A stretch of DNA of 57,877 bases, taken from positions 32,473 through 90,349 of the forward strand of contig BRYA01000034.1 in NCBI GenBank assembly GCA_030267965.1, read 5' to 3'. The notes beneath the pieces were generated by a model that had not been told where the DNA came from, made no database searches, and worked only from the letters and a program-made list of their open reading frames with translations. Source of the DNA: Triparma columacea. Its lineage: Eukaryota > Sar > Bolidophyceae > Parmales > Triparmaceae. Shown here in pieces: positions 43,800 to 57,877 of this stretch. The first letter of the stretch is position 1, and each line of letters opens with the position of its first letter. Position numbers and translations under genes: made by a program.

Positions 43800-44717
43800 A
43801 TGCCCAAATCAGCAGTATACTCTGGCGAGAGCTTCTTGAATGATCGTGAACTCACAGAGGTGACTTTTGCAAAGGGAGTGACGACGATTGGCGATGACGC
43901 CTTCGCCGGATGCACCTCCCTCACGGCCATCACCATCCTGGACGGAGTGACGGAGATTGGCGAACGCGCCTTCTTCAGATGCTCCTCCCTCACGGCCATC
44001 ACCATCCCGGACGGAGTGACGAAGATTGGCGAACACACCTTCAGGGAATGCTCCTCCCTCGCAGCCATCACAATTCCGGACGGAGTGACTACAATTGGCC
44101 CCCTCGCCTTCTGTAGATGCTCCTCCCTCACAACCATCACCATCCCAGACTCAGTGACGACGATAAGCGATGGCACCTTCTACGAATGCTCCTCCCTCGC
44201 AGCCATCACAATCCCGGACGGAGTGAAGACTATTGGCCAATTCGCCTTCTGCGGATGCTCCTCCCTCACGGCTATCACAATCCCGGACGGAGTGACGACG
44301 ATTAGCGATGGCGCCTTCTATGAGTGCTCCTCCCTCGCATCCATCACCATCCCGGACGGAGTGACGTCGATTGGCTATGAAGCCTTCAGAGATTGCTCTG
44401 CCCTGACGAGACTCAGTTTATCTCCTGCCGTCTCCATCGGTGAAGACTGCTTCCTCAACTGCACTGCCCTAATCTCTGCCGCTGCCGATCAAAATATGCC
44501 GACTGTCAAGGACCTCCTCCATTCTCGGTGGCACCGCATACGTGATCGCGTCACCGTTCTGTCCTGCCTCAAGGCACTCTTGGAGGACCAGCCCAGGAGA
44601 TCGGATAGGCTGAAGCGGAAGCGCCTTGACGGAGATGAAGTGGTCGCGCTTCAGGGAACTGCGGCATTCAAGAGGCTCCCGAAGGTTATGTGGAGAGTTA
44701 TTCTGGAATTTCTGTAA
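43800..44717 (+). CDS. BspA-type leucine-rich repeat protein
   Basis: A single exon of 305 residues. Residues about 10-225 are eight or nine LRR_5 repeats of 23 residues with consensus CSSLTAITIPDGVTTIGDxAF. Repeats are highly similar at the DNA level (69-bp period), with ACGGAGTGACGA recurring, so they look recently expanded. The C-terminus (HRIRDRVTVLSCLKALLED, then a basic RRSDRLKRKR, then KRLPKVMWRVILEFL) resembles the short tail seen in stramenopile members of this family. There is no signal peptide, so the protein is probably intracellular, unlike bacterial BspA. Function unknown; a binding scaffold is typical. Confidence 0.88.
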   Translation: MPKSAVYSGESFLNDRELTEVTFAKGVTTIGDDAFAGCTSLTAITILDGVTEIGERAFFRCSSLTAITIPDGVTKIGEHTFRECSSLAAITIPDGVTTIGPLAFCRCSSLTTITIPDSVTTISDGTFYECSSLAAITIPDGVKTIGQFAFCGCSSLTAITIPDGVTTISDGAFYECSSLASITIPDGVTSIGYEAFRDCSALTRLSLSPAVSIGEDCFLNCTALISAAADQNMPTVKDLLHSRWHRIRDRVTVLSCLKALLEDQPRRSDRLKRKRLDGDEVVALQGTAAFKRLPKVMWRVILEFL

Positions 44718-46921: not shown

Positions 46922-49900
46922 ATGGACACGGAAAGTGAATCCCGAGGAGGGAGAGAAGAGCGTGTGACGGAGACCCATATACTTCAGCTTGACGCCCCGA
47001 TGTCCGATAACTGCCATTCAGAACCCGATCTTGGCCATGAGAGGCAAGTTACTCCGTCTTTGTCAATTGAAAGACCCCATGGGGACGCTGGACGAGGTGA
47101 GTTCGTATCAGGGGGTTGTAGGGGTGGCGCTATTTGATATTCTACAGGGAAGAAGGACGATATGTCGGATCACGCGTGGAAATCTTTTCACTTTGACTAA
47201 CGAACGCCATAATCGCCATTACCGCAGACTCTGAACATGGTCATGAAGACGTCGGAGGAGGTGAGTTGTGCGTCGAGAGGCGGAAAAGAAAAATACATTT
47301 TAATACTCTAGGGGAGAGCAGGAGAGTCGGGGGAGGGCGCGTTGAAACTTTGTAGTTTTTTCTCACCGCCTGTGTGCGGAACGCACGGAGCCGTTTGCGG
47401 AGGGCCTGGCCCTTGGCGTCGAGCTCGACGGGCGGCGGCCGCGGCGCATGTGCGCACGCGCCGGTCTGCGGTGACCGTATGAGATCCATCTCCAGCGACC
47501 GCGTGGGTTCCGTCTGCGGCGACCGCATGGGATCCGTCTCCAGCGACCGCGTGGGTTCCGTCTGCGGCGACACCATGGGGCGCTTCTGCGGCGACCGCAT
47601 GGGGCGCTTCTGCGGGGACCGCATGTGTTCCGTCTCCGGCGACCACGTGGGGCGCTTGATATGCTACACGGAATCGAGGGGCACGCGTTGAAACCTCTTC
47701 ATGTTGACTAACATAACAAACACCATAATCCCCATTACCGCAGACTCCAAAAACAGCCACAAGGACGCGGGACGAGGTGAGTTGTGCGTTGAGAGCCGGA
47801 AGAGAGAAATACATTTTAATACTCTAGGGGAGAGCAGGAGAGTCGGGGGAGGGCGCGTTGAAACTTTGTAGTTTTTTCTCACCGCCTGTGTGCGGAACGC
47901 GCGGAGCCGTTCGCGGAGGGCCTGGCCCTTGGCGTCGAGCTTGACGGGCGGTGGCTGCGGCGCACGCGCGCACGCGCCGGTCTGTGGCGACCGCATGGGA
48001 TCCATCTCCTGCGACCGCTTGCCTTTTTTTACTCTTTTTCACCAAAAATTCCCCCAAAACCACCCCCAGAAATTTCTGGCCATCCTCATCTTCAACCTGG
48101 ATTTGAAAAGTTCAACGCCGAAATTTTGGACGATCCCTTAAACGGTGGAATAGCCAACGAGAGCAATCTAAGCGCTATACCGCCTGCTGTCGGGCGCGCG
48201 ACTCCCGGCCGCACGCCAGTCGGCCTTGCGACTGTCAGCCACGTCACTGCCGCTCAGTCCATGACATTAGTTCCTGACAACACCGTCAGCACCATCAGGA
48301 ACAAAAATCCCCCGCAGTCCCTCTCTAGCCCCAATCATACACCCTCCGCAATACATGGCCCCATAGATATCGATTATGCAGCTCATGGTCTCGAGCAAGG
48401 CAAACTTGTGAAGCTTCTTGAGGAGAGAGGAGCTGTTGAAGGCCTCATTGACAACTCTACTGGTGTCGATGTGAAGATTATGGAGCTCGCTGGTGTCTTC
48501 CATGACCAGCGCGACAAGATCATTGACTTTTTCCTCACCGATTGTGAGCAGGGCAAGTTCCGAAGGAAGACCCTCCAGGAGCATGACGAAGAGGAAGGAG
48601 TCATTCACAGACTCGTCTACTGGCAGCACTACGGCAGCCGGAATAAGTTCATCGAATTTCTCCTCGACATCAAAGTCGTATCTCCTGACAAATCGACGAA
48701 CATTATTGAGTTGGCACCCCTTGATGAGGACGACCTTACTGATGAGGCAACTGCAATGCTTGTCAAAATTCTAGCGTCAATAAAGACCAAGACTGTCAAG
48801 CGAGGTGTCATTAAGGGAGAGCTCAGCTTCACTGACTTCGAGTTTGGACAAACCGCAGTCACCATGTTGGGAACTCTTAAGGCAGAGGAGAGAGCATCAG
48901 AGACGAAATCAGAAGTTGATGTTCGCACAGTCAAAGGCTTTAAATCTGCCAAGTTTACAAACGTTGGAAGGATAATAAGCAACATCAGCAGGGTCAAGAA
49001 AGTAGCTTACAAGGATGTATTTGTTTCATGGAAGGGAATTCTAGATGAAGTCATGAAGAAGTTCAGACAGCCTGCAGTCATTGACGAGCGGAGGAAAAGA
49101 CTCTTTGTGGAGGAGATCATGCCAAGGGCACCACCTCTGACAATAGAGGAGGATGCAATGTTGGAGAGGGTTGGGAGGCTAGAGAAGGAACTTCACTCCA
49201 AGGGGAAGAGAGTCAAGGGGACATTGAAGGAAGGGGTGGACAAGTTCTTGTGGAGAAAGGGGGACAATGTGTGGGGAGCCTTTGGGGTCACTGTGGACAA
49301 GTCAGCAGAGGGTATGCTGGCTGAGCTAAGTTTAGGCGAGACTTACACTTATGCAAGAAAGCATCTGAAGGAGAATGGCAATCTGCCTAGGGTTTTTAGA
49401 CAGAACGTTGATGGAACTAGAAGTCACCATCAACACCAAGGAATTCACTTACCTAACCCAGCAAAAGACCGTCTCTTTGAATCCTGGTTCTCTTGGAAGG
49501 AAGTCAAACTTGAGAATGGGCGGACTTCATACATGTTAGCTTTTGTGCCACTGACAGAGTACCCTGGAGGAGGCTTCAAGGACCTCAGTAAGGAAGGATT
49601 TGTGCTAGCAGAGACTACAGGTGTCTACTTCTTCAATGAGATTGCCCCAAATGTCTGTAGAGTCACACGCGTTCAAACATTTAATCTGAAATTCACTGGC
49701 CTTCTTCCAAAGGCAGTGATGGACAAAGCAATTGACTACCTTGCAAAGAATGAGCTTGTTGAGGCCAACAGGTTGCAGGAGAAGTTCAGAAGGAACGGGA
49801 AGGAGGTTGATGCTGAGGTCAGGGGGATTCTGGTGGAGAGGATGAGGGAGGGTGTTGAGTTGGAGGAGGACCAGAAGAAGGTGTTTGGGGAGTTGGAGGA

Positions 49901-52900
49901 GCTCTTTGGTGGGGAGGAGGAAGAAGGGTGGGGGCCTCTTGAGTCACCTTATGAGGGAGTGAAGATGGAGATCAAGTACAATCAACAGAAGAAGGGTGAG
50001 AGGAGCATTGCACTCGGGAGAGCTTACGGAAATGCAGACTGTACAGCAGAGGAGGCAGCAGCATGGTACTTTGAGTACTGTGGCAGGGAGAGGAACACTC
50101 TTGGTTTCCAGGCTGGCGATCTTGCCCGGCTTGAAGTAAGAAAGGGAGTGCAAAGGAGAAACGAGAAGCTGATTGCATCAGTTAAGAAGTTTCCTTTGCT
50201 GCTCAATAACAGAGAATTTGTCTTTAGAAATCTGTGGAAAAAGAACAAAAACGACAGTATCTCTGTTGGCTCTTGGCCAAGCGACGATGAGATTGATTAC
50301 GGTGGAGAAATTAAAAATGTAGTCAGAGCAGAAGGCCAAGGACTGCTTATAGCTACCAACATCAGCAAAGATGGAGGGATAGGGCAGTGTAAGCTTGACT
50401 TTAAACAGCACTTGGATGCAGGCGGTTTCATCCCCCTAAAACTCGTCGAGAAAAAATTTCCAAAGCAACTGCAAATCTTACACGAGATCAAAAAAGCTTT
50501 TAATAAAGATGAGGAGGTTGATAAGGCTGCGCTAGAGAATCTTGCAAACATCATGAGAAATGAGCAGCAAAATTATACTAAGGAGGAGGAGGAGGCAATC
50601 AGGAAGGGGAAGAAGTTTTATGAGAAATGCAAGGAGGATGAGAACTTTGATGAACTGAAGATTCCTGATGAGAGGGTCAAGATGAAGCTAGTTCATGTTG
50701 ACGGGGAAAGCAGTGGGACTGGTTTTGCCACTACTGTGGTTGATGCTAGTGTGGAGGAGTGTGCTGCACACGAGTACATTCTGGACTCAAGAGCATTTAA
50801 AAAGAGGGCAAAGGAGAAAGGCATAACTGACTATCACATCAACCATTTAAGTGAGCACTCATATAACTACATCACAACGAGAGAACTAGGAATTCCTGGG
50901 TTTTCTCCTCGTGATGGAAGGAGTAAAATTACCTGGTTCAAGCAAGATGATGGCAAAGTTATCATTGATGTTGCAGACACAGAGGAGCTCCATAAAGACT
51001 TTCCAGTGAAGGCTAGGAATGTGTTAGTGAAGGCACACACAGTTTATATATTTGAGCCACTGGACCCTATTGGAGATGTGTCACAAACATTAGTCACTTT
51101 CACAACAAAGGTAGACCTTGGTGGTGTATTCTTCTCCTCCATCATGAACAAGCTCGCTCCAACTTTTCTTTCTGGAGTCTCTAAATTGAGGAAGAAGTTT
51201 GACAAGAGCAAAGAGATTGGAACCTTCAATAGACAGCAGATCATTGCAAAGTTTGAGGAGATTGCAATTGAGGGAGCACCAGGCATTGAAAGTCATTTTG
51301 ACGAAATTGAGGGAGCCCAAGAGATCAGTAGTGGGTTGACTGGGCAGGCATTGATAAAGGCAGAGAAGGGAATGGGATGGGGGAAGACTTCAATTACTGT
51401 GAGAGCTTCCAATAAGGAAGTTGCAGCATTCTTCTGGGGCCTTAAAAGCCAAGTTGACTCCCAGTTTGAGCTGCACAGAGTCAATAACAAGACACTTGTA
51501 GCCACATTCAAACACGAAGGGCGATTCACAGCTGTAAGGTTCTCGGAGGCTGACCACATGAGGACAGATCTTGAACTGATGACTAGACAAATTGGTCTAG
51601 GAAAGGCTGCCAGCAAAGAGAGTGTAATTGAGCATCTGGGCACTGCAACTGATGCTGCTTACTTCTTTGATAGCCTTCTGAAGAGTGCAGAAGCAGGGGA
51701 AGAGGATGGAAGGAGGTTTGGAGAGCAGCTGATGGAGAGAGTTAAGAGAAAGAATATTGGGGACAGTAAGGTAGAGGTTGTGAGGGAATTTATTGCTGCC
51801 AATAGGACACTGAGAGAGATTACAGAGCAGCATGGTTTCATGAGAACTATGCTGTATGCTGTGATTATGAACAAATTTAAAAGGAGAGCGACAAATGAGG
51901 GAGAAGTTAAGAGTGAGGAGGAAGCCAGGGGGTGGGAGATTGGGAGTGCAATGACAGCAGTCATGTTGACCACAGCAACTGCTGCTCATGCTGTTGATGA
52001 ATGGGCACATCAATTCACTGAAGTGCAGGAGGTTATGAGTGAACAAGTGTGGTTAAGGCCCATGCTTGAGGAGATTGTCATGAAATTATTTATGAAGTCT
52101 AACTTAGGCTTAAAGGCAAGGGTCACTGTTGGTGCTGTCACAAGCATTGTCGATTTGCTGACTGATATATATGTGACGTATAAGTTTGGAAGTGATAGGC
52201 AATGGGGGTACTTTAAGGCATCTTTGGCAAGTTTGGCAGCATCAATTGGGATTCAAATGCTTTGTGTGTGGTTTCAGAACAAGGAGTTGGGGATGTTAAG
52301 AGTGCTAAGGGAGTGGTTTCCTATTTTGATCGGATTTAAGCCTGCTGTTGATGCATACAGGGTTGCAACTGGGGCAAAACAAGAGGTTGGGACTGCACTT
52401 GACCCAATGTACGAGATGACATTTATGAAAGGGACTGAGATGTTCGCAGAAGCTATACCTGGAGTGATAATTCAACTTATGGCCATAGCAACAAGTGACA
52501 AAGAGGTTGGAACTTCAGCATGGCTCTCAGTTGCAGTGTCAGCTATTACAACAGGCTTTGCCTCGGCAACAATTAGTTATGACTGGGACACAGACCCTGG
52601 TTTGAGACAATCAGCACCAAACTTCTATGGGTATATACCTGCAAAAGCAAGCAAGAGAACAGTAGTATTTGTGTCCATGTTGCTGTTGTCAGCAGGAATG
52701 CTTGTAATAAGGTGTACAACAATAGTTCTTCTTGGGTTAATGGGAGGAAATTGGGCGTTTCTCTACATTGGCGCTGACCTTGGTCTGTACTTGTTGGTTA
52801 AGATATTGAGGGGAGACTTCTGGTACTGGTTTCCATCAGGGGGTAATTTGGAGATTGTGAGTAGCATTTTTGGCAGAGTGATTATAAAGATCATTACAGA

Positions 52901-55900
52901 CTTTACTTCAATTATGCACTTTAGACATCATAATGAAGTTGGGGGACTGTACTGGTTGTTTGGTCTTGTGTTGACTATGGGAAGCTTACCAGTGTCAATA
53001 TTTGTAACTTCACCTTATATTGGTGAGAAGCCAATTGAAATAGCATCATCAATTGTGAAGTCTTTCATACCAATAACCACTCTATGCTTTGCTTTCTTCT
53101 TGTTGAACATTGAAAGTAAGTACTTGCACACCTTCTGGAGCACAAAAAGATCTAAGGATATGTCTATGGCATACTTCCTTGAAGGGGAAAGTGATAAAAT
53201 GAAGTTTGACACTCTGAAGCTTTCAAGGCATCACTGGGTCTCTATTGAAGAAGAAATTAAGAAGTGGGTTGGCTTAAACTGGGCTAAATGGGAAGAGGAG
53301 AAACCAGAGTGGTTTACTGATGTGACGAAAGCTTTGGTGCCTGTAGATTTTATTCCAGCAGATGGAGATGCTAGAAGGCGAGAAAGTGTAAGGAGAGCAA
53401 GTGTTGATGCTGAAGCTGAGGGTGGTCTAGCAGGTGCTTTGAGTGCAAGTATTAGGAGAGCAAGTGTTGGCTTTGACAACGGAGGCGCACTGATTGCTTC
53501 ACATGCTGGTAATGATACTACACAAGAATATACAGGTTTAGATCCTAGCCAAATAGGAAAGTTGTTGGGTGAGCAACTATTGGTTGCATTAAGTTTTAGG
53601 AAGAAGGGAATGACAAAGGAGGAAGCTTTAAGGTCATTTATTGGGAAGAACTACGTTCTGAGACAGGCTACAGAGAAGTATGCATTTGTCACACCAATGA
53701 TTGGCGCAGTTGTCAAGAACAAGCTGTGCAAGTTGAGGAAGGTAGAGGGTAAGGCTGTACAGCTGGGGGAGAAGGAAGGAAAGGAGATCGGAGAGTCTCT
53801 AGCTAGGAGTTTAGCAATCAATACTCAGCCAGTTGCTGCAGTTGATGCCTTCATATTAAATTTCCCTGCTCTGCAGGAGCTTGATGAGGAGTATGGATGG
53901 TTCAGACCTATGTTGGAGACAATTAGCTACAGGCTTTTGGAGGAAGTTCCTTGGGGGTTGAAGGCAAGGGTGACTGTTGGGGCTATCACAAGTATGGCTG
54001 ATTTGCTGACTGATGTGTATGTGACATACATGTTTTGGAGTGATAAGAAGGATGGGTACTTTAAGGCATCTTTGGCAAGTTTGGCAGTCTCATTTGGGAT
54101 TCAAATGCTTTTTGTTTGGGGACAAAACAGGAAGTTGGGGATGAAGAGGGTGCTTAGGGAATGGTTTCCAATTTTGGTTGGGTTTAAGCCTGCAGTTGAT
54201 GCTTATAGGGTTGCAAGGGGAGAAAAGCAAGAGATTGGGGCTGCAGGTGACCCAATGCTTGAGATGACATGCATGAAAATTATTGAGATGTTTGCTGAGG
54301 CAATTCCTGGTGTAATCATCCAAATAATGGCAATAGCAACAAGTGACAAAGATGATGTTGGAACTTCAGCATGGCTTTCAGTTGCAGTGTCAGCAATTAC
54401 CACAGGCTTTGCCTCTGCAACAATTAGTTATGACTATGACACAGACCCTGCTAAGAGAGAACACACACCAGACTTTTATGGGTACATACCAGCAAATGCA
54501 AGCAAGAGAACAGTAGTATTTGTGTCAATGCTGCTATTCACTTCAGGAATGCTTCTAATAAGGTGTACAACAATAGTTCTTCTTGGGTTGATTGGGGGTA
54601 GTTGGGCCTTTCTCTACATTGGAGCTGACCTAGGTCTGTACATTTTGGTTAAGATACTGAGGGAAGACTTCTGGTACTGGATGCCTTTTGGGGGTAACGT
54701 AGAAGTTTTGAGTAGTATTGTTTTCAGAGTGATGGCAAAGATCATTTTAGACTTCACTTCAATGGTGCAGGCTAGAAATCCAAACGAAGTTGGGGGAGCT
54801 TACTGGTTGTTTGGTCTTTTGTTGACAATGTCGAGCCTACCAATCTCAATATATGTAGCTTCACCTTTTGTTGACAAGAGTGCAATTAATATAGCATCAT
54901 TGATTATGAAGTATATCATACCAATAACTGCCCTATGTTTTGCTGTCTTCTTTTTGAACATTGAGAAGAAATACTTGTACACTTTTTGGAGCATACAAAG
55001 AGGGAAGGACAAGACAATGGCATATTTCCTTGAAGGGAAAAGTGATGCAATAATGTTTTCAGTCTTTAAAAGGTCAAAACATCATTGGGTTTCAATTGAA
55101 GGAGAAATGAAGGAGTGGATTTGGTTGAACTGGGCAAAGTGGGAAGAGGAGAAACCAGACTGGTTTACTGATCACTTGAAAGCTAAAGTGCCAGTAGAGT
55201 TCATTCCAGCAGATGGAGATGCTATAGAAGATGGGAAAAAAATGGGCAAGCAGCTAATGCAAAGGTTGAAGGAGAAGAAACAAGGGAAGAGTAAGATTGA
55301 CGTTGTAAAGGAATTCATCACAAGCAACCAAGCACTGAAAGTGCTTGTAGAGCAAAACAATTTTGTCGGAACAATGTTGTGCGCTGTGGTGAGGAACAAG
55401 CTGAAAAGGGATGCTGCAAAGGAGGGCTTGAATGAGAATGAGGAGGAAGCCAAGGGGTGGAAGATCGGGAGTGAGCTAACAAAGACCATGTCAGTTACAA
55501 CCTCTGTTGAGGAAGCAATAAGTTTATGGGCCGAGAAGCACTCTGAAGTGCAAGAAGTCATGAGAGAGCATGGCTGGCTAAGACAAATGCTCAAGGTTGT
55601 TGTTAAGGATTTATACTTCAAGACAAACTTTGGCTTGAAAGCACGGGTTATGGCAGGTGCAGTGCTGAGCATGACTGATGTGCTGACTGATGTGTATGTG
55701 ACGTACATGTTTAGGAGAGGTAAGAAGTATGGGTACTTTAAGGCATCTTTGGCAAGTTTGGTAGCGTCAATTGGGATTCAAATGTTGGCTGTTTGGGCAA
55801 ATAACAAAAATTTGGGAATGAAAAAGGTGTTGAGGGAATGGTTTCCTGTTTTGGTTGGGTTTAAACCTGCTGTAGATGCTTACAGGATTGCGAAGGGAGG

Positions 55901-57092
55901 AAAACAAAAGTTAGGGACAGCTGTTGACCCAATGGTAGAGAATACATATATAAAAGGGTCTGAGATGTTCGCAGAAGCTATACCTGGAGTGATAATTCAA
56001 CTTATGGCCATAGCAACAAGTGACAAAGAGGTTGGAAATTCAGCATGGCTTTCAGTTGCAGTGTCAGCATTTACAACAGGCTTTGCCTCTGCAAGTATCA
56101 GTTATGATTGGGACACAGACCCTAGTAAGAGAGAAGGAATGCCATACTTTTATGGGTATATACCAGCAAATGCAAGCAAGAGAACAGTAGTATTTGTTTC
56201 CATGTTGCTATTCACTGCAGGAATGCTTCTAATAAGGTGTACAACCATAGTTCTTCTTGGGTTGATGGGAGGTAAATGGGTCTTTTTCTACATTGGAGCC
56301 GACCTTGGCCTGTACATTTTGGTTAAGATATTGAGAGGAGACTTCTGGTACTGGTTCCCAACCGGGGGTAACTTAGAGATCGTGACGAGTATTGTAATGA
56401 GAGTGATGGTAAAGATCATTGTAGACTTTACTTCAATAGCGCAGTTTAGACATTCCAATGAAGTTGGAGGAGCATATTGGTTGTTTGGTCTTGTGTTGTC
56501 AATGGTAAGTCTACCAGTGTCAGTATATATAAATCTATTTTCTGCTTATGTAGATGGCAATCCAATTGATATTGCATTGTTTATAGTGAAGTATATCATA
56601 CCAATAACTACCATTTGCCTTGGTGTTTTCTTTTTTAACATTGAGAGGAAGTACTTGCACACATTCTGGAGTACACAGAGGTCAAAGGACTTTAATATGG
56701 CATATTTCCTTGAAGGAGAAAGTGATGCTAATAAGATTGTAGTCTTTGGAAGCTCAAGGCATCATTGGGTCTCAATTGAAGGAGAGTTAAGAAAATGGAT
56801 TGTGGCGAACTGGGCTAAATGGGAAGAGGAGCAGCCAGATTGGTTTACTGATGTAAGGAAAGCTACAGTACCTGTAGAATTTATTCCACAAGATGGAGAT
56901 GCTAGAAGGAAAGAGAGTGTTAGGAGAGCAAGTGTTGATGCTGAAGCTGAGGGTGGTCTAGCAGGTGCTTTTAGAGCAAGTGTTAGGAGAGCAAGTGTTG
57001 GAGGTGCTACTGGTGGAGATACTATAGAGGCAGGGGGTGGGAAGGCTGAAGTAAGCAGTGTAGTGCTGATGGAAGATGATGATGGCAAGTGA
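46922..57092 (+). CDS. giant protein: START-like lipid-binding domains plus three 8-helix XK-like membrane modules
   Basis: Predicted exons 46922-47096, 47228-47260, 47744-47776 and 48070-57092 are all in phase 1 and give about 3,087 residues. The large last exon alone is open for about 3,000 codons. Residues about 470-645, 713-875 and 951-1121 look like START-type domains (for example ETTGVYFFNEIAPNVCRVTR), with a fourth partial one near 1175. Three repeated modules follow at about 1290-1890, 1900-2470 and 2470-3060. Each has about eight hydrophobic helices with shared motifs: GLKARVTVGA, LTDxYVTY, GYFKASLASL, EMFAEAIPGVIIQ, SKRTVVFVSM and FWYWFP. The EAIPGVIIQ and LTDxYVTY regions recall XK-related scramblases, but only loosely. 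Modules one and three end with RRASVDAEAEGGLAGA, likely kinase sites. It is more AT-rich than the window's other genes. Function inferred: lipid binding or transfer at a membrane. Confidence 0.72.
47190..48018 (+). repeat. duplicated intron-exon cassette at the 5' end of the giant gene
   Basis: Two blocks of about 310 bp, near 47190-47500 and 47703-48018, share an intron end (TTGACTAAC...CCATTACCGCAG), a 33-nt mini-exon, the GTGAGTTGTGCG donor and a long near-identical intron start (including AAATACATTTTAATACTC). The mini-exons differ (DSEHGHEDVGG versus DSKNSHKDAGR), while the introns differ less. Confidence 0.82.
47465..47657. repeat. 24-bp tandem repeat within an intron
   Basis: About eight units of TCTGCGGCGACCGCATGGGATCCG-type sequence. 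The unit is a multiple of three, so both strands have long open frames (CGDRMGSV on the plus strand). By my exon model it lies in the intron between the two mini-exons of the giant gene. A single related unit is present in the next intron. Confidence 0.85.
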
Positions 57093-57809
57093 CTAATAGG
57101 GCAGCAACATTTGTAGGATGAAACGATTTTATTTGGTTTATTGTGACTATTTTGAAAGTGTTTTAAGTGTAGTAGATGTATTGTGGTAGTGTTAAAGTAA
57201 TTTGTGAGTATTGAGGAAGTGTAGTGGGAGTGTATGGAGTTTTTGAGAGTTGTGAAAGTGTTATAGTGGTTTGTGAGTATAAAGGAAGTGTAGTAGATGT
57301 TTATGGGATAAATAAAAAGAAGGTGAGTGTGGTTATGGAGAGGAGAGGGTGGAATTGAGGGGAAAGAGTTGTGGAGAGGAGAGTATAAGGTTTAGTGGTG
57401 TAAGTGTGTGTAGGTAAATGTTAATAGAGTTTGAAAGAATTAAAGGAAAAGTTATAGCGGTTTGTTAGTATAGTGGAAGTGTAGAGAAGTGTATGGGGAT
57501 AAATAAAAAGAAAGGAGAGTGTGTTTGTAAAGAGAAGAAAGAGGCGTTGAGGGGTGAGAGTAGTGGTTTATGAGTATAATGGAAGTGTAGTAGATGTGTA
57601 TTGGGATGAATAAAGGAGTGTGAGTGTAGTTGGGGAGAGGAGAGAGAAAAAGAAAGGGGTGAGAGTAGAAGAGTGGAGGATATATTGTAGAATGGTGTGT
57701 GTGTGAGAATGGTATATGGAAATATGTGTGTGTGTGGGAATAAATGTGTAAGTTTGTAGTGGTTTGTAGTGATTTGAGTGATTTTAAGTGGATTGGTAGA
57801 AGTTTTCTG
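57093..57809 (+). repeat. C-poor subtelomeric degenerate repeats
   Basis: This stretch is almost free of C on the plus strand, rich in G, T and A. Degenerate units of about 100-200 bp recur, with GTGGTTTGTGAGTAT, GGAAGTGTAGTAGATGT and GGGATAAATAAA seen at about 57155-57310, 57455-57510 and 57560-57615. No gene is seen. The first part may be the 3' UTR of the giant gene. Confidence 0.8.
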
Positions 57810-57877
57810 TTAGGGTTAGGGTTAGGGTTAGGGTTAGGGTTAGGGTTAGGGTTAGGGTTAGGGTTAGGGTTAGGGTT
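57810..57877 (+). repeat. telomere, (TTAGGG)n
   Basis: Eleven perfect TTAGGG units run to the end of the window. The G-rich strand runs toward the end, so this is a true right-hand chromosome end and the sequence stops inside the telomere. Confidence 0.98.

What the first reader, a model, noticed from the sequence alone, without database searches (positions are those of the whole stretch)
46922..57092. Giant subtelomeric START plus triple XK-like membrane protein
One gene encodes about 3,087 residues with several START-like domains followed by three copies of an approximately 8-helix module (about 24 helices in total). I know of no described protein with START domains joined to repeated XK-like scramblase-type modules. 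START domains bind lipids and XK-family proteins scramble phospholipids, so this could be a one-chain lipid transfer and scrambling device at a membrane. The long open frame, recurring motifs and in-phase exons are seen directly; the domain names are inferred.
Basis: partly seen in the sequence, partly recalled or inferred. Interest (0 to 1): 0.86.

Follow-up and report, generated by a model that had tools for sequence, protein, structure and literature searches.

The report
Chromosome-end family of START–XK giant proteins
The gene encodes a giant membrane protein that joins lipid-binding domains to three scramblase-like membrane modules, and it is one of hundreds of related, reshuffled copies near chromosome ends in what appears to be an alga, a layout best known from the variable surface genes of parasites.

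Summary
Window 46922-57092 holds a 4-exon gene for 3,087 residues ending 717 bp before a TTAGGG telomere array. Its membrane part is three XK-like modules (PF09815 over the cut-off). START domains D2 and D3 are supported by profile comparison and, for D3, a low-confidence model; D1 is only probable. START and XK share one frame in 7 other copies.

It belongs to a family: 286 places on 266 contigs were listed, estimates 290-401. Of 181 long-frame places with known distance, 180 lie within 10 kb of a contig end and read towards it; 13 of 16 listed telomeric ends carry a member or fragment. START domains behave as separately exchanged cassettes; pN/pS is below 1; linkers carry RRxS motifs.

The host looks like a Triparma-type parmalean (inferred). 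START enrichment there is in print (PMC10328945); my searches found no report of the XK fusion or telomeric location. Lipid transfer plus scrambling is my best guess, untested.

The parts
46922..47096 (+). exon 1 (58 residues, ends in phase 1, GT donor)
   Evidence: frame and splice-site reading only; not confirmed in other copies
47228..47260 (+). exon 2, 11 residues, phase 1 on both sides
   Evidence: lies in a stretch also found upstream of other copies (blastn)
47464..47651 (+). 24/48-bp minisatellite in the intron between exons 2 and 3
47744..47776 (+). exon 3, 11 residues, similar in form to exon 2
48070..57092 (+). exon 4, main coding exon (open frame 47862-57092)
48390..49148 (+). N-terminal soluble region, no Pfam match; conserved in the family
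   Evidence: 150 contig/strand places among the matches; 389 first-look candidates; no Pfam row
49224..49781 (+). D1, probable START-like domain
   Evidence: weak: 58% to D2, 2.4% to the START reference by hhalign
49935..50507 (+). D2, START domain, hypervariable cassette
   Evidence: hhalign 89% to START reference, 98% to D3; by coordinates the PF01852 match of copy C166 falls here; discrete types
50649..51221 (+). D3, START domain, variable cassette
51225..51728 (+). D4, soluble region, unassigned
   Evidence: no START similarity found by hhalign (0.09%)
51759..53339 (+). XK module 1
   Evidence: PF09815 E 0.0048 on its own, below the cut-off (16.4 bits); 15 of 15 aligned modules match at E<=1; limits
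53340..53612 (+). linker with three RRxS motifs (residues 1839, 1844, 1865 of P0001)
53613..55190 (+). XK module 2 (holds the best PF09815 stretch, residues 2038-2364)
55284..56870 (+). XK module 3
56871..57092 (+). C-terminal tail with two RRxS motifs (3021, 3042) and stop
57809..57877 (+). TTAGGG telomere array, end of contig C34

Best explanation
The gene is a member of a family of several hundred genes, most of them near contig ends and read towards the end, many with a telomere there. The family encodes giant START-XK membrane proteins: an N-terminal region, two to three START domains, an unassigned region D4, and one to three XK-like membrane modules followed by RRxS-bearing linkers or tails. 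Shown: the location, direction, domain order, purifying selection in intact copies, and near-independence of many neighbouring segments, which I read as ectopic recombination between chromosome ends. Inferred: each START cassette binds a particular lipid or hydrophobic ligand on the cytosolic side; the XK modules let lipid equilibrate across the membrane, or couple ligand binding to that; phosphorylation of the linkers switches the modules; exchange of cassettes between chromosome ends keeps a varied repertoire of lipid specificities.
Confidence: 0.5

Rival explanations
1. A telomere-encoded recognition or surface-variation repertoire. The START cassettes are variable binding faces and the XK modules mainly a membrane anchor or signalling unit; chromosome-end recombination makes new combinations, as in parasite surface gene families, here serving self/non-self recognition, mating or defence against viruses or grazers.
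For: Telomeric place and uniform direction; discrete D2 types, 7 at 70% identity in 18 rows, and 10 D1-D2 combinations (D3 did not divide these 18 rows at that threshold); the nearest paralogue switches along the window gene; framework identity 0.81-0.89 against 0.56-0.70 in cassettes.
Against: pN/pS below 1 in all 22 windows; START domains are usually cytosolic (general knowledge), and no topology or signal-peptide analysis was done; no expression data.
Confidence: 0.3
2. Passive passenger: an ordinary START-XK lipid protein that was caught in subtelomeric duplication and spread to the ends by ectopic exchange, with copy number and mosaicism as by-products and no selected repertoire.
For: Ectopic exchange homogenises subtelomeres in many eukaryotes (general knowledge); framework blocks are more alike than cassettes; a share of copies is in short frames (29 of 150 places under 900 residues, hand count), two listed matches hold a stop (C527, C556), and two rows of mine had stops in the START part (L053, L034).
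Against: The frames listed are 1,002-3,216 residues with no stop inside the match; pN/pS is below 1 in the 18 copies tested; D2 keeps discrete divergent types.
Confidence: 0.15
3. Assembly effect: a dispersed repeat that breaks the assembly and therefore appears at contig ends.
For: The assembly has 789 contigs; only 6 of 20 sampled family-bearing ends finish in TTAGGG arrays, one reads N; a few of the contigs are only 10-18 kb long, where nearness to an end means little.
Against: All 101 minus-strand long-frame places lie within 7.2 kb of the contig start and 79 of 80 plus-strand ones of known distance within 10 kb of the contig end, i.e. one orientation only; a broken dispersed repeat should show both. 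13 of 16 listed telomeric ends carry a member or fragment; the window copy is complete and followed by a telomere.
Confidence: 0.05

Closest known systems
XK-related proteins (PF09815; XK, XKR8/CED-8)
   Same: Pfam profile match over the curated cut-off, polytopic module
   Different: Three modules in tandem in one chain here (one to three in the family), fused to START domains, with an extra N-terminal segment and RRxS linkers; fold and scrambling not shown
START lipid-transfer domains (PF01852; CERT, STARD10, StarD13)
   Same: Profile match of D2 and D3, fold match of a D3 model
   Different: Tandem, mosaic, fused to XK modules; ligand unknown
START-domain expansion in Parmales (PMC10328945; section 7 and passages seen)
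   Same: Probably the same lineage; START among the most enriched domains, up to 141 genes in Tetraparma gracilis, some multi-domain
   Different: Main text has no word beginning with telomer, subtelomer, XK-related or scramblase; supplementary tables could not be read
Subtelomeric variable families (VSG of trypanosomes, var of Plasmodium; recalled, related papers seen only as a listing)
   Same: Gene next to the telomere, many copies, exchange among copies
   Different: Lipid-binding domains and scramblase-type modules, in what looks like a free-living alga; no evidence of exclusive expression

Membership tests
XK-related (PF09815) | Profile match above Pfam's curated cut-off | tested here: met
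   whole protein 34 bits vs 24.8; module 1 alone is below it, 16.4 bits; all but two of 120 genome matches over the cut-off alone or with neighbours; 15 of 15 modules at E<=1, best 7.8e-8
XK-related (PF09815) | XKR8/9 fold | tested here: inconclusive
   model pLDDT 37, no Foldseek match at E<=0.001
XK-related (PF09815) | Phospholipid scrambling activity | not testable with these tools
   needs a bench assay
START (PF01852) | Profile match above cut-off in the window copy | tested here: not met
   no START row for P0001 or its START region
START (PF01852) | Profile match above cut-off in family members | tested here: met
   C602, C166, C620 in frames of 2,417-3,414 residues that also hold XK; C106 and C611 with neighbours; C248 and C366 below it
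START (PF01852) | Helix-grip fold | tested here: met
Subtelomeric variable multigene family | Copies concentrated next to telomeres | tested here: met
   180 of 181 long-frame places of known distance within 10 kb of a contig end, directed to it; 13 of 16 listed telomeric ends; most family-bearing contig ends sampled do not themselves show telomere repeats (6 of 20 do)
Subtelomeric variable multigene family | Recombination among copies | tested here: met
   segment distances near-independent, nearest paralogue switches
Subtelomeric variable multigene family | Exclusive or switched expression | not testable with these tools
   no transcript data

The most novel reading that the evidence does not exclude
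In what looks like a free-living alga most chromosome ends carry a copy of a combinatorial gene repertoire, about 300-400 giant START-XK proteins, whose lipid-binding domains are shuffled as cassettes by telomere-proximal recombination. That is a telomere-based variation system built on lipid recognition rather than on surface antigens.
Probability: 0.3. Interest if true: 0.95.

Novelty: new variant of a known kind. Interest (0 to 1): 0.8.

Why it matters
Telomere-linked variable gene families are known mainly from parasites and fungi (general knowledge). Here one seems to fill very roughly 5-10% of the genome of what looks like a marine photosynthetic microbe (inference: 290-400 copies of about 7-9 kb in 37.85 Mb; less if many copies are truncated), with lipid-binding and scramblase-type parts. 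It would make testable whether lipid transfer and scrambling can be joined in one chain, and why a free-living cell keeps a recombining repertoire at its chromosome ends. It may also explain part of the START expansion already reported in Parmales.

Tried and rejected
Protein database search for relatives outside this genome could not be made, so the distribution in other stramenopiles is unknown. Scans of viral contigs with the module and START alignments found no confirmed relative (42 and 63 pattern matches). PDB sequence searches with P0001, A2 and A1 gave no useful hit (none, one at E 0.48, none). The XK module model failed. An assembly artefact was considered and judged unlikely (see rivals). 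Conservation of exon 1 could not be shown. Rows left out: L053 (stop), L034 (stop) and L041 were left out of the START alignment, and L054 and L055 added. In one search seven places with frames under 900 residues were set aside from the 192; two places (C528 and C133, plus strand) were dropped as separate genes, while places in short frames were kept. In one search 13 of 20 sequences were usable. The module tree used modules with more than 380 profile positions and no support values were looked at.

Full report
Observation. The frame 47862-57092 is open for 3,076 codons. The stop codon is 717 bp from a TTAGGG array that ends contig C34. The coding exon has GC 0.441 against 0.535 in window 1-46900.

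Family. Searches of the window's own genome (37.85 Mb, 789 contigs) with the START region, module 1, PF09815, the N-terminal region and module 2 list 286 distinct contig/strand places on 266 contigs, short frames included. Lists are capped; capture-recapture between lists gives 394, 401 and 290, and the N-terminal query had 389 first-look candidates. The lists are not independent random samples, so these are rough. By hand count 29 of the 150 places are in frames under 900 residues, so part of the copies is truncated or interrupted. Frame lengths (histogram) and module counts in copies read far enough indicate one to three modules per gene. In a tree of 65 modules, first and second modules fall in different parts, with a third group holding one module each of three three-module genes, so the tandem duplication is probably older than most of the spread.

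Place. Of 185 places with frames of at least 900 residues, the distance to the contig end is known for 181 (101 minus, 80 plus). 180 are within 10 kb, and the gene reads towards that end; the exception is C207 at 20 kb. A few of the contigs are only 10-18 kb long. The 125 minus-strand entries all start within 10.4 kb of the contig start. One search listed 16 telomere-bearing ends among its first 100 places; 13 carry a member or fragment (C2, C12, C48 and, as a fragment, C53; C22, C29, C34, C36, C52, C55 and the right end of C70; C62; C27). C68 had none in the 6 kb read, only a sub-threshold START match farther in; C20 and the left end of C70 were not read. Of 20 sampled family-bearing ends, 6 finish in telomere repeats, 13 in other sequence and one reads N. 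Twenty contigs have places on both strands; for 11 of them the contig length is known and the plus-strand place is near the far end. C70 has telomere arrays at both ends over 75,484 bp, so at least one chromosome is very small.

Variation. In 18 full START regions chosen for likeness to the window copy, distances inside D2 correlate at 0.83-0.95 and between the first two parts of D1 at 0.76, while correlations between D1, D2 and D3 lie between -0.12 and 0.13. Less clean in the same table: the last part of D1 is unlinked to the rest of D1 and goes with D4 at 0.34, the stretch after D2 goes with D2 at 0.50-0.57, and D3a/D3b reach 0.48. A second set, chosen by module 1 instead (13 of 20 sequences usable), gives 0.83 within D3 (p 0.0005) and values not above chance at the adjacent pairs D3/D4, inside D4, D4/M1, inside M1, M1/M2 and M2a/M2b; M2b/M2c is linked (0.36, p 0.007). 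D2 identities are bimodal: 30-60% (mostly 40-50%) or 70-100%; at 70% identity the 18 rows hold 4 D1 types, 7 D2 types and one D3 type, in 10 combinations. The nearest paralogue changes along the window gene. The ratio of mean pN to mean pS is 0.16-0.60 in 22 of 22 windows, so these intact copies are maintained. I saw no sign of positive selection.

Linkers. After complete modules, 34 of 35 stretches hold RRx[S/T]; one of the 35 (L029) is the window's own linker read a second time, and the one without is the window's 32-residue second linker. RRxS as a protein kinase A consensus is recalled knowledge.

Host. The genome has two silicon-transporter blocks side by side on C443, one gene or two neighbours. 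PMC10328945 (passages and section 7 seen) says many parmalean SIT genes hold two SIT domains through duplications in the Triparma lineage, lists genome sizes of 31.0-43.6 Mb and GC of 49.8-52.4% in seven of eight genomes, and names START among the most enriched domains. I infer a Triparma-like parmalean; the record is unnamed. PMC7427184 (whole text seen) gives one such genome, 902 scaffolds and N50 83 kb.

What is in print. No held paper has both 'XK-related' and 'START domain' or both 'Bolidophyceae' and 'telomer'; 'subtelomeric' with 'XK-related' gives two clinical papers (listing only), and 'XK-related', 'scramblase' and 'protist' two papers (listing only). on subtelomeric families were seen as listings only. 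Preprints and most subscription journals are not in the library, and supplements could not be read.

Mechanism. Shown: order of parts, place, direction, selection in intact copies, segment independence. Inferred: START pockets bind lipids, XK modules scramble, linkers are phosphorylated, exchange happens between chromosome ends. I put about 0.5 on lipid transfer with scrambling as the basic activity and 0.3 on a recognition repertoire as the reason for the variety; the two can both be true.

Noticed in passing
G000 contig C70; contigs with members at both ends, e.g. C34 (the window's contig, 90,349 bp): C70 has telomere arrays at both ends over 75,484 bp and 20 contigs have members on both strands, so the genome seems to include very small chromosomes; N50 values of 63-83 kb in five of eight published Parmales assemblies may reflect this.
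   Followed up: partly
47464-47651 and the repeated stretches around 47280-47440 and 47780-47960: A 24/48-bp minisatellite between exons 2 and 3 and a duplicated intron-plus-11-residue-exon unit, parts of which also lie upstream of other copies.
   Followed up: partly
L053 (contig C2:1-6000): A divergent one-module member, about 36-50% identical to the window copy in its longer matches, with an in-frame stop in the START part.
   Followed up: partly
43875-44387: 69-bp tandem repeats inside an open frame that looks like a BspA-type leucine-rich repeat protein (name recalled), near the giant gene.
   Followed up: no
48070-57092: The gene has lower GC (0.441) than window 1-46900 (0.535) and a GC skew of 0.26 on its coding strand.
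   Followed up: no
L061 (contig C379): A gene with several START matches followed by hydrophobic segments, a possible relative of the fusion's START part.
   Followed up: no
G000 contig C443:12133-15086: Two silicon-transporter blocks side by side, used here to infer the host lineage.
   Followed up: partly
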